NCBI GenBank assembly: GCA_902790935.1 | Contig: CADATP010000017.1 | Location: 1 to 37,933 of the forward strand | Direction: 5' to 3' | From: an uncultured Lachnospiraceae bacterium | GTDB lineage: Bacteria > Bacillota > Clostridia > Lachnospirales > Lachnospiraceae | Length of the DNA: 37,933 nucleotides | Part shown: positions 33,158-37,933 of the stretch, in pieces | Numbering within the stretch: position 1 is the first letter of the stretch | Layout of the letters: each line of letters begins with the position of its first letter | The notes under the pieces: generated by a model | Seen by the model: only the letters and a program-made list of their open reading frames with translations | Told to the model about the DNA's origin: nothing | The model's database searches: none | Position numbers and translations under genes: made by a program

Positions 33158-34027
33158 TTATCTTATGTCTCCCATAAAGAATAAAGCGATAAGACTGGGG
33201 CCTGTATGTCCGCCGATAACAGGGCTTAAGTTGTTGATCATACAATTCTCAAATCCAAAACGCTCCTTGATCATATCTCTTAAAAGCTCAGCATCTTCAA
33301 GACAGTCGCCGTGGTTTATCATGATCATCTCTTTGTTAAGATCTTTACGGCTTCCCATCTTTTCATCCATAAGCTCGAGGAGTCCTGCCAAAGCCTTCTT
33401 ACGTCCTCTTACCTTATCAACGGAAATAAGCTTTCCTTCGTAGTTTACATGTAAAAGAGGCTTAATAGAAGCAAGAGTTCCGAGGAAAGCACTTGTCTTT
33501 GAAACACGTCCGCCTCTCCAAAGATCGAAGAGATTGTCTACCGTAAAAAGATGAACCATATTCATCTTGTTGGATTCAGCCCAGTCCGCAGCTTCTCTTA
33601 AAGACTTTCCCTCTTTCCACATCTTGTTTACATAGTAAAGTAAAAGTCCCTGTCCCATAGCGGCGCAAAGAGTGTCAACCACAATGATCTTAACCTCGGG
33701 ATGTTCATCCATGATCTCTTCGGCAGCAATACGGCAGCTGTTTACAGTACCTGAAAGGCCGGATGAAAATCCAAGATACAGGATTTCCTTATATTCACCG
33801 ATATAACCTTCAAAAAATGCTTTTGCTTCCTGAGGGTTAACCTGCGAAGTAGTAGGTTTTGCACCGTTTCTCATACGAGCGTAAAAATCCTGAGCGGCAA
33901 TTTTCTTATCCTTGCCCCAGACAACCTCACCGTCAATAAAACAAGTAAGATTGATCACGCCAATTTCATTTTCCTCATAAAAGCTTTCAGGAAGGTCACA
34001 AGAACTGTCGGTTAATAATTTCCACAT
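33158..34027 (-). CDS. DegV family fatty-acid-binding protein
   Basis: A 289-residue DegV-family protein. It begins MWKLLTDSSCDLPESFYEE, the family start (xxIxTDSxxDLP). The lipid-binding Thr/Ser contacts lie in GAKPTTSQVNPQEA and LGFSSGLSGTVNSC, and GGRVSKTSAFLGTLASIKPLLHV is conserved. DegV/FakB proteins present fatty acids to the kinase FakA, but no fakA is nearby and many DegV proteins have no known role. The gap 34028-34130 upstream holds a Shine-Dalgarno (AAAGGAG) and a weak GGATC/GATCC hairpin. Confidence 0.9.
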   Translation of the reverse strand: MWKLLTDSSCDLPESFYEENEIGVINLTCFIDGEVVWGKDKKIAAQDFYARMRNGAKPTTSQVNPQEAKAFFEGYIGEYKEILYLGFSSGLSGTVNSCRIAAEEIMDEHPEVKIIVVDTLCAAMGQGLLLYYVNKMWKEGKSLREAADWAESNKMNMVHLFTVDNLFDLWRGGRVSKTSAFLGTLASIKPLLHVNYEGKLISVDKVRGRKKALAGLLELMDEKMGSRKDLNKEMIMINHGDCLEDAELLRDMIKERFGFENCMINNLSPVIGGHTGPSLIALFFMGDIR

Positions 34028-34130
34028 AATTCAAACTCCTTTTCGGATCGGCCTATTGCCTGATCCTATGTATAGCGCTAAACAAATCTGTAAAAATATA
34101 ACATAAATACGTTTAAAAAACAACAATATG

Positions 34131-34637
34131 CTATTTTGAGGTACTTCCGAAGCCTCCGTTTCTTACTCCGGTGGCATCATCATCCTCAGTAATACCGTAC
34201 TGCAGGAATATACCCTGGGAAAAAGCATCTCCTGTTTTTATCTCCACGCTTTTACCTTCATTTGAATCATTAGTGATCTTAACAAAGATATGTCCTTCAT
34301 TGTCAGAACCGTAATAATCGCTGTCAACTACTCCAACGGTATTGTTGAGCTGGAGTCTGTATTTAAATCCAAGACCGCTTCTCGGGAATATAAACAGGGC
34401 ATAATCATCGTTAATGCGGCATCTGATACCCGTAGGGATTTTGATCGTCTCTCCGGGGGAAAGCTTAAAATCAACAGTTGAGAAAATATCATATCCTGCT
34501 GAATACGCGGTAGCTCTCTTAGGAAGCTTGATCCCCTCGTATATTTCGTTTAACCTTTCATCAGAAAAGCCAAAATCTCCCATATCCTTTTTAAACTGCT
34601 TTAACGAAACCTTTTCAAATTTTGCTACTGCTTTCAT
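34131..34637 (-). CDS. dut: dUTP diphosphatase
   Basis: A 168-residue trimeric-type dUTPase that hydrolyses dUTP to dUMP. All five motifs are visible in order: SAGYDIFS, FPRSGLGFKY, VGVVDSDYYG, FSQGIFLQYG and the C-terminal RNGGFGSTSK arm. An N-terminal extension of about 35 residues (KFEKVSLKQFKKDM) precedes the core. The ATG overlaps the nrdG stop by 4 nt (ATGA), so the dUTP-removing step is coupled to deoxyribonucleotide synthesis. Confidence 0.96.
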   Translation of the reverse strand: MKAVAKFEKVSLKQFKKDMGDFGFSDERLNEIYEGIKLPKRATAYSAGYDIFSTVDFKLSPGETIKIPTGIRCRINDDYALFIFPRSGLGFKYRLQLNNTVGVVDSDYYGSDNEGHIFVKITNDSNEGKSVEIKTGDAFSQGIFLQYGITEDDDATGVRNGGFGSTSK

Positions 34638-35122: not shown

Positions 35123-37276
35123 TTACATAGATTTTCTATCGGCGATCTCAGCCATTTTGGCGCTGTTGAGCCTTGTGTCGCCGTGAACTCTAGAATAAGA
35201 TAGATATCCGTTCATTCGCTCTATCTTTGTAAGATTTCTGCTTCCGCATTTAGGGCAGACATCCATCTCAAGCTCTTCGTGGCCGCAGTCGTCACAATAA
35301 GCAAGGGACATATTTACGCCCTCGTAAAAACCAAGCTTCATTGCACGTCTTATAAGAGTTCTGATGGCTTCGATATTGTAGCTTATGGGATACTTAACGT
35401 ACTGGATCTTTCCGCCGTTAAAAAGATCCCAAAACCGCTTTTCATAATCCTGTTTCTCAATGGGCGTAATGTCCTCGGAAACATGGCAATGAAAGCTGTT
35501 TGAAACGTAAGGCCTGTCGGATACGCCTTCAATAATACCGTAGATATTTCTAAACTGCGTGATCTGAAGTCCGCAAAGATTCTCGGCCGGCGTTCCGTAT
35601 ATTGCGTAAAGATTACCGTCCGCTTCTTTAAATTCCGTGACTCTTTTGTTTATATGCTCCATAACTTCAAGGGCAAAGGCGCCATCCTCCACAAGACTTT
35701 TTCCGTTGTAGAGTTCCTGAAGTTCATTGAGAGCCGTAATTCCAAAGGAAGCTGTCGCAACCTTTAAAATAGGTTTTATCTTATCATGCAGTCCCAAATG
35801 GCCGCCGTAAAAACCGCCCTCACAGTAAGCTAGAGGGTTTGTGGAAGCCGTCATCTCTCCGAGATATGCATAAGTCCTTATATGTATCTGACGGATCATC
35901 TCAAGATAATAATCAAGAACAGTATAGAAGTCTTTGTTCTCTTTTCTTGATTTTGCCAGGATCATCGGAAGATGAAGGGATACAACACCTATATTAAACC
36001 GTCCGATAAAAACAGGTTCATCATCTTCATCAGCAGGATGTATACCGCCTCTTTTAAAGTAAGGCGACAGGAAAGCCCTGCACCCCATAGGTGAGATAAC
36101 CTGTCCGTATTTTTGATATATTGAAGCTACGTAACCCTCTCCCGATAAAGAAAGCCAGTCGGGATACATTGATCTTGAGGAGCACTCTACTCCCGCTTCA
36201 AATACGTCCTCTAGAGGGCAGCCCTTTCCGTGAAGCTTTTCATCGTAGAGAAAGACGATTTTCGGGAAAAGAACCGGTTTTTTATGTCCTTTCTTTCCCT
36301 GACCATTCTTTCTGACATTAAGCATGGTAATAGCAGCAAGCTTCTCAAAGCGGCTCTGTCCAAGGCCTATCGTCATCGTAATAAAAGGGTAATCTCCGCG
36401 GCTTGAAGCTACGGTATTAAACTTGTACTCCCAGCCCTGAAATCCCTGTTCAAATTCCTTTGAAATATCCTCAAACGCCGTTTTATCCGCAAGATCATCG
36501 GCAATTCCGAGTCTTTGGTACTTTGCCAGATACTTGTTAAATGACTTTTCAGCATAAGGCTCTAAGATCTTGTCAACACAGCTTATAGTAAATCCGCCGT
36601 ACTGCTGGCTGGCAGCAGAAAGGATGATATCACCCATAACGTCGAAAGCTACGTCAAGAGTCTTCGGCTCATTGTACCAGACATTTCCCATCTCAAAGCC
36701 GCCCTTTAACACGCTTTCGATATCAAAGAGGCAGCAATTCATGGTATCTCGCCTTGCAGACATATCGTGAATATAAATATATCCGTCGTTATTGGCCTGG
36801 ATCTCTTCCTGGGTCATAAAAAACTTTTGATAAAGCTGGCGGTTAAGCTCATTAAATATAAGGCTTCTTCTTGTACTTACAAGGGCAGAATCCGTATTGG
36901 AATTTTCCTTGTCGCCGATGTACATGATGGACTGGCTTTTGCGATATACATCATCCAGCATATGTATAAAATCCTGCTTGTAATTGCGATAATCACGGTA
37001 GCTTTTGGCTACTGCAGGATTTACGGACTCTAATGCGCCCTCGACAATATTGTGCATAAGGGGTATATGAATCTCGTCCGATCCGCTTTCATCAACACGG
37101 CGCACAACGAATTTGCAGATGTTTTCTTTGTCCTCATCTGTAAATGTCACCATGGCTCTGTATGCACTTTTCTGAACAGCATTTATTACCTTCGTTACAT
37201 CGAAAGGAACTTTAGTGCCGTCTTTCTTGATGATATATACCTGTTTCGCAGGCTTATATACTTCTCCGTATTCCAT
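35123..37276 (-). CDS. nrdD: Anaerobic (class III) ribonucleoside-triphosphate reductase
   Basis: A 717-residue class III reductase making dNTPs from NTPs without oxygen. An N-terminal ATP-cone covers about residues 10-105 (VYIIKKDGTKVPFDVTKVINAV). The barrel carries GDIILSAASQQYGGFT and the MGCRAF segment. Near the C-terminus, a zinc site uses Cys661, Cys664, Cys674 and Cys677, followed by the glycyl-radical loop ERMNGYLSYSR with Gly690. The ATG has GGAG 7 nt upstream. The 490-nt structured region before it may act as its leader. Confidence 0.97.
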   Translation of the reverse strand: MEYGEVYKPAKQVYIIKKDGTKVPFDVTKVINAVQKSAYRAMVTFTDEDKENICKFVVRRVDESGSDEIHIPLMHNIVEGALESVNPAVAKSYRDYRNYKQDFIHMLDDVYRKSQSIMYIGDKENSNTDSALVSTRRSLIFNELNRQLYQKFFMTQEEIQANNDGYIYIHDMSARRDTMNCCLFDIESVLKGGFEMGNVWYNEPKTLDVAFDVMGDIILSAASQQYGGFTISCVDKILEPYAEKSFNKYLAKYQRLGIADDLADKTAFEDISKEFEQGFQGWEYKFNTVASSRGDYPFITMTIGLGQSRFEKLAAITMLNVRKNGQGKKGHKKPVLFPKIVFLYDEKLHGKGCPLEDVFEAGVECSSRSMYPDWLSLSGEGYVASIYQKYGQVISPMGCRAFLSPYFKRGGIHPADEDDEPVFIGRFNIGVVSLHLPMILAKSRKENKDFYTVLDYYLEMIRQIHIRTYAYLGEMTASTNPLAYCEGGFYGGHLGLHDKIKPILKVATASFGITALNELQELYNGKSLVEDGAFALEVMEHINKRVTEFKEADGNLYAIYGTPAENLCGLQITQFRNIYGIIEGVSDRPYVSNSFHCHVSEDITPIEKQDYEKRFWDLFNGGKIQYVKYPISYNIEAIRTLIRRAMKLGFYEGVNMSLAYCDDCGHEELEMDVCPKCGSRNLTKIERMNGYLSYSRVHGDTRLNSAKMAEIADRKSM

Positions 37277-37299
37277 ACATTTTCTCCAAGTATATTCAT

Positions 37300-37760
37300 T
37301 AATCCTCGGGCCTAGGCTACATATGCTATTTTCTGCGCGAAGATAACGCTCCGTCGAAATATTCCTCGAATTTCTATGCGCCTGCTAAAATTGTCTCTGG
37401 AGGGGAGACAATTTTTACGCATTCGCTTAGAACTTCGGGACAGATTTCTCCTGCGCTAAGTACATCTTCAGGTTGCACAGAAAACAGCATATGCACCCTC
37501 TCCCTCGAGTTTATGATATCTCAAGGCACAAGTGCGGTAAGATTGGTATCTGAGCGGGTAGATGGAGCACTTAGCAAGAGTCGCGTGCGGAAATCGGTCC
37601 CTGCGATATTGTTCGAGCAGTTCACGCCATATAGCGTGAACGTCGCGAGTTTGAGCAGGGCGATTTTGTCCTTAGCTAAGCGACTCGAGCTTAGTAGCGG
37701 AATCGTAGCGAAGAACCAACTTACCGTGATTGTGCCGTGAAATATCAAAATCTAGCCCGG
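37300..37760 (-). ncRNA. Candidate large structured RNA between the aminotransferase gene and nrdD
   Basis: This stretch (within the gene-free 37277-37766) has no credible protein gene and is visibly less AT-rich than other spacers. Helices: a 21-bp long-range stem (37318-37338 with 37475-37495); hairpins 37387-37397/37405-37415 (11 bp), 37621-37627/37634-37640 (7 bp), 37676-37681/37689-37694 (6 bp) and 37503-37509/37520-37526 (7 bp); and a possible end-to-end closing stem 37307-37314/37753-37759 with one bulge. The three non-Watson-Crick pairs of the long stem and the one in 37503/37526 are A-C on the plus strand but G-U on the minus strand, so minus-strand transcription is favoured. It could be a free RNA or a long nrdD leader. 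I recognised no rnpB, tmRNA, SRP, T-box, cobalamin or group I/II intron signature. Confidence 0.55.
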
Positions 37761-37766
37761 GGTTAA

Positions 37767-37933
37767 TTAAATAATTCCGCTAGTAGCGATGACCTTAACG
37801 GCCTCCTCGATAACAGGAACCGGCAAAACGAGTGCAAAACGGACATGTCCCGCACCTAAAGTGCCGAAGCTGCTTCCGGGAGTACAAAGAACTCCTGTAG
37901 CGTCAAAAAGATCCATAACAAATTTAACATCAT
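37767..37933 (-). CDS. Class I/II PLP-dependent aminotransferase, C-terminal fragment
   Basis: The last 54 residues of a gene that begins beyond the right edge. The frame reads DVKFVMDLFDATGVLCTPGSSFG, then LGAGHVRFALVLPVPVIEEAVKVI, ending ATSGII. The TPGSSFG and HVRFALV segment is the C-terminal small-domain signature of fold-type I aminotransferases of the aspartate/LL-diaminopimelate group, including the substrate-carboxylate-binding Arg. Substrate cannot be told from this part. Confidence 0.8.
   Translation of the reverse strand, partial: DVKFVMDLFDATGVLCTPGSSFGTLGAGHVRFALVLPVPVIEEAVKVIATSGII

What the first reader, a model, noticed from the sequence alone, without database searches (positions are those of the whole stretch)
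37277..37766. Candidate new large structured RNA upstream of nrdD
Seen: 490 bp without a gene, with a 21-bp long-range stem (37318-37338/37475-37495) enclosing further hairpins, several more hairpins outside it, and complementary ends (37307-37314/37753-37759). Four imperfect positions (37319/37494, 37328/37485, 37336/37477, 37506/37523) are A-C on the plus strand but G-U on the minus strand, a directional sign of selection on an RNA. Inference: a roughly 450-nt RNA transcribed towards nrdD, either a regulatory leader for anaerobic nucleotide reduction or a stand-alone RNA. No known large-RNA signature was recognised.
Basis: partly seen in the sequence, partly recalled or inferred. Interest (0 to 1): 0.78.

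Follow-up and report, generated by a model that had tools for sequence, protein, structure and literature searches.

The report
Mobile two-hairpin repeat beside nrdD
The folded stretch in front of nrdD is real, but it is most likely one copy of a family of jumping, non-coding DNA elements made of two very large hairpins, scattered between genes in related gut bacteria, rather than a switch for nrdD.

Summary
In detail: no convincing gene, the 21-bp stem (18 of 21 pairs), the named A-C/G-U positions, and folding far beyond shuffles. The nrdD reading does not. The stretch is a 459-bp insertion (37304-37762) between an aminotransferase gene and nrdD; one congener (G013) shares it, four others with that gene order have 24-45 bp there. 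Its hairpins A and B are dispersed repeats: B core in 14 of 31 genus genomes (up to 15 matches), A core in 5 of 31; neither matched Rfam. Pairs covary strongly. In G008 the same B-A composite has amplified recently and has ~23-bp terminal inverted repeats. All 11 composites detected are divergent. Best reading: a MITE-like, REPIN-like mobile element of two giant inverted hairpins, moved in trans. The enzyme, this copy's target duplication and any RNA function are not shown. Related: Rfam's Clostridiales-1 RNA, found at one of the same sites, is itself recently mobile: 15 of 16 copies examined have 6-7-bp target duplications.

The parts
37304..37762 (.). whole inserted element (459 bp): short terminal inverted repeats enclosing hairpins A and B
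   Evidence: absent from 4 congeners with the same gene order
37304..37315 (.). terminal inverted repeat, nrdD side (minus strand CTAGGCCCGAGG)
37752..37762 (.). terminal inverted repeat, aminotransferase side (minus strand CCCCGGGCTAG)
37299..37303 (.). possible target-site duplication, ATTAA on minus
   Evidence: no such repeat seen in the G013 orthologue, so only possible
37763..37767 (.). possible target-site duplication, ATTAA on minus
   Evidence: same caveat
37314..37499 (-). hairpin A; the more stable strand is minus
37325..37468 (-). conserved core of hairpin A (model R2 match)
37508..37753 (+). hairpin B; the more stable strand is plus
   Evidence: family-wide polarity
37580..37673 (-). 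conserved core of hairpin B (model R1 match; the model is written on minus)
35123..37276 (-). nrdD (PF13597 plus ATP-cone), downstream neighbour; its likely ribosome-binding site (GGAG, by eye) lies outside the element
37767..37933 (-). 3' end of an aminotransferase gene, upstream neighbour, cut by the window end
   Evidence: the orthologue in G014 matches PF00155

Best explanation
The stretch is a non-autonomous, non-coding mobile element of two very large imperfect hairpins in divergent inverted arrangement, bounded by short terminal inverted repeats. It inserted between an aminotransferase gene and nrdD in a common ancestor of this organism and G013. Shown: dispersal, absence from the orthologous spacer in relatives, recent amplification of the same B-A composite with terminal repeats in G008, one fixed arrangement of paired hairpins, strong two-sided covariation. 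Inferred: a transposase supplied in trans recognises the ends and/or the folded hairpins; the arms stay complementary because one is rewritten from the other at the DNA level, or because the fold is needed for movement. Once between codirectional genes the hairpins would become part of the mRNA and could affect its processing, as a by-product.
For: Own genome: besides this copy, 11 partial matches at 10 other places, in two separately dispersed modules. Genus: B core in 14 of 31 genomes (66 places), A core in 5 of 31. Aminotransferase-nrdD spacer 490 (own) and 537 (G013) against 45, 31, 42, 24 in G014, G012, G007, G016. G008: five left-half and seven right-half contigs of B-A elements; three left halves are 94.6-95.7% identical to a fourth, the fifth (C78) 80%; the right halves are 97.0-98.8% identical to one another's reference; the terminal repeat TAAATTGTAGTTTAACKKACTAA is on 11 of these 12 contigs with at most 3 mismatches. 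One right half begins at the nrdG stop codon and one left half has flanks syntenic with the window beyond nrdG. 11 of 11 composites detected are divergent. Covariation: 13 of 16 pairs with two-sided change, 94.5% of cells paired against 31-43% when slid. In-place inversion: at one site the hairpin (94% identical over 201 nt) lies in opposite orientation between 88% identical flanks in G000 and G013. Parallel: Clostridiales-1, found at the same pgk-tpiA gap, is mobile with target duplications.
Against: No transposase or autonomous partner was found (no family search was made on the sequences read). No clean target duplication for A/B copies: ATTAA in the own genome only, at most TA in G008. Terminal repeats differ between species. 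Many sites are shared by several species, so some copies are old and could be kept for a function. The 11 composites are not independent. Loss in the four congeners instead of gain was not excluded by a tree. The strand polarity of the folds would also fit selection on an RNA.
Confidence: 0.78

Rival explanations
1. A cis-acting leader RNA that controls nrdD.
For: Position in the spacer before nrdD; hairpin A folds best on the nrdD strand.
Against: Among congeners searched, found before nrdD only in G000 and G013; spacers of 24-45 bp in the four others with the same gene order; copies stand beside tpiA and at many other, mostly unidentified, genes; in G008 a B-A element lies after nrdG instead.
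Confidence: 0.03
2. A multicopy family of stand-alone structured RNA genes, transcribed from their own promoters.
For: Fold polarity: the sense strand of B is the more stable in 52 of 54 copies and that of A in 5 of 6, as for 6S RNA (23 of 24) and Clostridiales-1 (12 of 12). Strong covariation.
Against: The two hairpins of one element have opposite polarity. Few G-U intermediates: one-sided to two-sided changes 24:143 for B against 58:105 for 6S (6S figures are my sums). At pgk-tpiA the B core lies on the gene strand in 3 and on the opposite strand in 4 of 7 species, and one hairpin is inverted in place between G000 and G013.
Confidence: 0.12
3. An intergenic mRNA-processing or stabilising element kept by selection in operons (REP/BIME-like), whose dispersal is secondary.
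For: Hairpins often fill the gap between codirectional genes; sites such as pgk-tpiA carry one in several species.
Against: At pgk-tpiA three loci have 19-27 bp and others quite different elements, so no particular hairpin is required. Not exclusive of the mobile-element reading.
Confidence: 0.25

Closest known systems
Clostridiales-1 RNA (Rfam RF01699)
   Same: Structured, multicopy in the same genus (28 of 31 genomes at E 0.001, 25 of 31 over the cut-off, up to 27 matches), found in the same pgk-tpiA gap; few G-U intermediates (15:108 by my sums). Shown here to be mobile in G558 and G585.
   Different: Different sequence and fold (several shorter hairpins, 189 bp in those genomes); the A, B and C loci tested did not match it, nor did the window.
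REPINs / BIMEs moved by RAYT (TnpA-REP) transposases
   Same: Non-coding, dispersed between genes, two palindromic units in inverted arrangement (definition recalled; only starts of abstracts seen).
   Different: Units several times larger than the 20-40-bp REPs named in the abstract of PMC3733652; no RAYT was sought; no GTAG/CGTC tag was tested.
MITEs (non-autonomous insertion sequences with terminal inverted repeats)
   Same: Short, non-coding, terminal inverted repeats, several closely similar copies in G008.
   Different: Interior is two giant covarying hairpins; the parent transposase and the target duplication are not established.
6S RNA
   Same: Long imperfect hairpin with strand-polarised folding.
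   Different: Used here as a control, not a match (no Rfam hit); more one-sided (G-U) changes than in B.

Membership tests
MITE | terminal inverted repeats shared by copies | tested here: met
   G008: ~23-bp repeat at both kinds of end of the B-A composites, on 11 of 12 half-element contigs. Window copy: ~11-12 bp, CCCCGGGC-TAG / CCTCGGGCCTAG, weaker.
MITE | target-site duplication | tested here: inconclusive
   ATTAA flanks the window copy but no repeat is seen in the G013 orthologue; only TA is possible in G008.
MITE | no transposase gene of its own | tested here: met
   459 bp, no conserved reading frame
MITE | parent insertion sequence with the same ends | tested here: not met
   none seen beside the G008 terminal repeat in 31 genus genomes (loci read by eye, draft assemblies). 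For this reason it is called MITE-like, not a member.
MITE | presence/absence differences at orthologous sites | tested here: met
   nrdD spacer; pgk-tpiA gap
REPIN/RAYT system | two palindromic units in inverted arrangement | tested here: met
   11 of 11 composites detected, not independent
REPIN/RAYT system | RAYT (Y1 HUH) transposase in the genome | not tested
   no family search was made
Clostridiales-1 RNA (RF01699) | covariance-model match above gathering score | tested here: not met
   window; L002, L003, L189, L196, L204, L205, L208
nrdD leader / riboswitch | conserved before the same gene in relatives | tested here: not met
structured RNA | covariation beyond shuffles | tested here: met
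   0 of 500 shuffles reach the covariation score (the number of further pair types, however, is reached by 478 of 500); this cannot tell RNA from DNA
structured RNA | a transcript | not testable with these tools
   no RNA data

The most novel reading that the evidence does not exclude
Lachnospiraceae carry a class of mobile elements coded by structure more than by sequence: paired giant hairpins whose arms drift freely but are continually rewritten to stay complementary, recognised for movement by their folded single strand. Rfam's orphan Clostridiales-1 RNA is a second family of the class, so part of the catalogue of orphan structured RNAs is really mobile DNA.
Probability: 0.3. Interest if true: 0.75.

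Novelty: new variant of a known kind. Interest (0 to 1): 0.56.

Why it matters
Covariation and a strand-polarised fold are the usual grounds for calling a new structured RNA. Here they occur in an element that behaves like mobile DNA, and a curated Rfam RNA found at one of the same sites proves to be mobile. The scarcity of G-U intermediates may offer a simple test to tell such elements from true RNAs, and the family gives a natural system for studying hairpin-templated sequence correction.

Tried and rejected
nrdD leader: rejected by the short orthologous spacers. Protein-coding: rejected on loop-length changes not divisible by three. Known RNA: Rfam at gathering on the window gave 0 matches; a permissive scan (E up to 1) of nine loci gave RF01699 in L193 and L202 over its cut-off and three matches to other families below theirs. 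Phage or plasmid origin: 0 matches in viral contigs by pattern, none in plasmids with the G008 element or in phages with the window element. Autonomous partner: a pattern search for the G008 terminal repeat in 31 genomes gave 12 sites in G008 and 2 in G012; of the loci printed none showed a transposase by eye. For Clostridiales-1, 20 fetched regions beside end-like sequences showed no shared transposase in the ORF list, again by eye and without a family search.

Unresolved: short hairpins sharing outer arms with long ones at pgk-tpiA (L191 against L196, L199/L200 against L189/L197), and miniature B copies. G013:C19 has a mini-B where G029:C37 has a full B; G000:C46 has a mini-B where G014 (L169) has a full B. 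But the two mini-Bs lie at different sites with the same junction and are 86% identical over 88 bp, so internal deletion, a miniature that moves, and insertion at hairpin tips all remain possible.

Against my reading, or weaker than it looks: the G-U/A-C asymmetry of B is 210 A-C to 125 G-U on the core strand in 54 of 65 collected copies (6 interrupted or truncated copies left out by name, 5 lost because no loop was recognised, among them the own copy, measured apart: 3 A-C to 2 G-U on minus). Averaged over 20 clusters the sign test is 14 to 6, p 0.12, the count test p 0.002. A second aligner gave 218 to 79 on the sense strand. For A the counts are 35 G-U to 7 A-C in 7 full copies (my sum), but 13 to 5, with 2 of 6 copies the other way. 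6S gave only 91 to 69. Sequence homology of A, B and C is only suggested (A-B mean score 26.4 against 21.1, sd 3.4, shuffled; A-C no better than shuffled), so 'sense' is defined within each type. Models were built from 17 of 19 B copies (interrupted L021 and L031 left out) and 6 A copies (contig-edge ones left out). One-sided and two-sided totals for Clostridiales-1 (12 copies) and 6S (17 of the 24 used) are my sums; the alignments differ in depth and divergence, so the comparison is rough. The 16 Clostridiales-1 copies were chosen for their high, similar scores. One search's output was cut in the middle, so the list of shared sites is incomplete. The names pgk and nrdG are recalled or positional; Pfam was run on five proteins only.

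Full report
Observation. The 490 bases fold far better than shuffles on both strands. Inverted-repeat analysis shows two large hairpins side by side: A, arms 37314-37338/37475-37499, and B, arms 37508-37541/37720-37753, within a short outer stem. Elsewhere in the 38-kb window the best palindromes are only about 20-55 bp long.

It is a repeat. Searching the own genome with the 490 bases gave 13 matches: this copy, its own palindromic cross-match, and 11 partial matches at 10 other places, some to A alone and some to B alone. Of 97 genomes, 11 had a match, all in the same genus. Covariance models of the conserved cores found B in 14 of 31 genus genomes (most in G005, 15) and A in 5 of 31. In a family sample, 2 of 299 genomes had B at the stricter setting: the own genome and one of another genus, G300. 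An exact pattern scanned over the named genome collection gave 19 stretches, all titled as Lachnospiraceae metagenome assemblies; several titles name rumen or roe deer.

It is an insertion. NrdD was searched in 30 genomes. The aminotransferase-nrdD order occurs in the own genome, G013, G014, G012, G007 and G016. G013 has a 92% identical element at the same place; the other four have spacers of 45, 31, 42 and 24 bp against 490 here. The other congeners whose upstream sequence was read, G008 and G005 among them, have a different upstream gene; their spacers look short by eye and were not measured. No species tree was built.

It is a composite with one arrangement. In G008 the same B-A composite exists in several copies at which contigs break: left halves on five contigs, right halves on seven. 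Three left halves are 94.6-95.7% identical to a fourth, the fifth 80%; six right halves are 97.0-98.8% identical to the seventh. Both kinds of end carry TAAATTGTAGTTTAACKKACTAA with at most 3 mismatches, on 11 of the 12 contigs. One right half starts at the stop codon of the gene after nrdD, taken to be nrdG; one left half has flanks matching the window at 33528-34632, where a dUTPase gene lies. That these are the two sides of one insertion is inferred. Across all loci held, the 11 composites that the scan distinguished (B-A, B-B, B-C, C-A) are all divergent; several share ancestry.

Structure and selection. For 59 B cores, 94.5% of cells pair, 13 of 16 pairs have two-sided changes, and no shuffle reaches the covariation score. 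Two-sided changes dominate: 143 cells against 24 one-sided, 23 of the latter at one pair. In 6S RNA from 17 genomes of the order the figures are 105 and 58, and in 12 Clostridiales-1 copies 108 and 15, by my sums. Arms that change together almost without G-U intermediates suggest coupling at the DNA level, for example one arm copied from the other, or a need for both strands to pair. Yet the folds are polarised: the sense strand of B is the more stable in 52 of 54 copies, of A in 5 of 6, of 6S in 23 of 24.

Sites. Many sites are shared between species. The gap between pgk and tpiA is a hot spot: B hairpins, C hairpins, Clostridiales-1 elements, short hairpins or almost nothing, depending on the species. 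B lies on the tpiA strand in three and on the other strand in four of seven loci there. At another site a hairpin 94% identical over 201 nt lies inverted between 88% identical flanks in G000 and G013, which speaks against a need for one strand in the mRNA. Miniature B copies without the core exist; how they arose is unresolved.

Clostridiales-1. This Rfam family is listed in Weinberg et al. 2010 as a probable RNA of Clostridiales and human gut (PMC2864571; only passages seen). It is in 28 of 31 genus genomes (25 over the cut-off) and in 45 of 295 of the order (42 over it). Sixteen high-scoring copies fetched from two genomes, G558 (9) and G585 (7), are each 189 bp and at least 95.8% identical; 15 of 16 are flanked by direct repeats of 6-7 bp, against 26 of 240 with 5 bp or more when flanks are cross-paired. 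Their ends form an imperfect terminal repeat (16 of 19 by eye; both ends are hits). This is direct evidence of recent movement. Two name searches of the paper library brought no title or abstract reporting it; the library holds only part of the literature.

Conclusion. The element is best described as a MITE-like or REPIN-like mobile repeat of two giant inverted hairpins. Mobility of the family is well supported; the agent of movement, the target duplication of this copy and any cellular role are open. Comparisons with REPINs rest on recalled definitions and on starts of abstracts in search listings.

Noticed in passing
L267-L282 (G558 and G585): Rfam RF01699 Clostridiales-1 RNA is carried by a 189-bp recently mobile element with 6-7-bp target duplications in 15 of 16 copies and imperfect terminal inverted repeats.
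   Followed up: partly
L189-L212, pgk-tpiA gap: A hot spot where different species carry different structured elements (B, C, Clostridiales-1), a short hairpin, or almost nothing.
   Followed up: partly
L069:64-331, L204, L205, L208: A third hairpin type (C) with GCACTTAGCGA / GAGCTTAGT arms, found paired with B or A.
   Followed up: partly
L077 (as L021) and L078 (as L031): B hairpins interrupted by further hairpins nested inside them.
   Followed up: no
L070 (G000:C46) and L079 (G013:C19): Two miniature B copies at different sites with the same core-less junction; relatives have full B hairpins at the orthologous sites (L169; L010). Origin unresolved.
   Followed up: partly
L153 (G300:C185:1040-1131): A single B core match in another genus of the family.
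   Followed up: no
L073 (G000) and L099 (G013): The same hairpin lies in opposite orientation between orthologous flanks, an apparent in-place inversion.
   Followed up: partly
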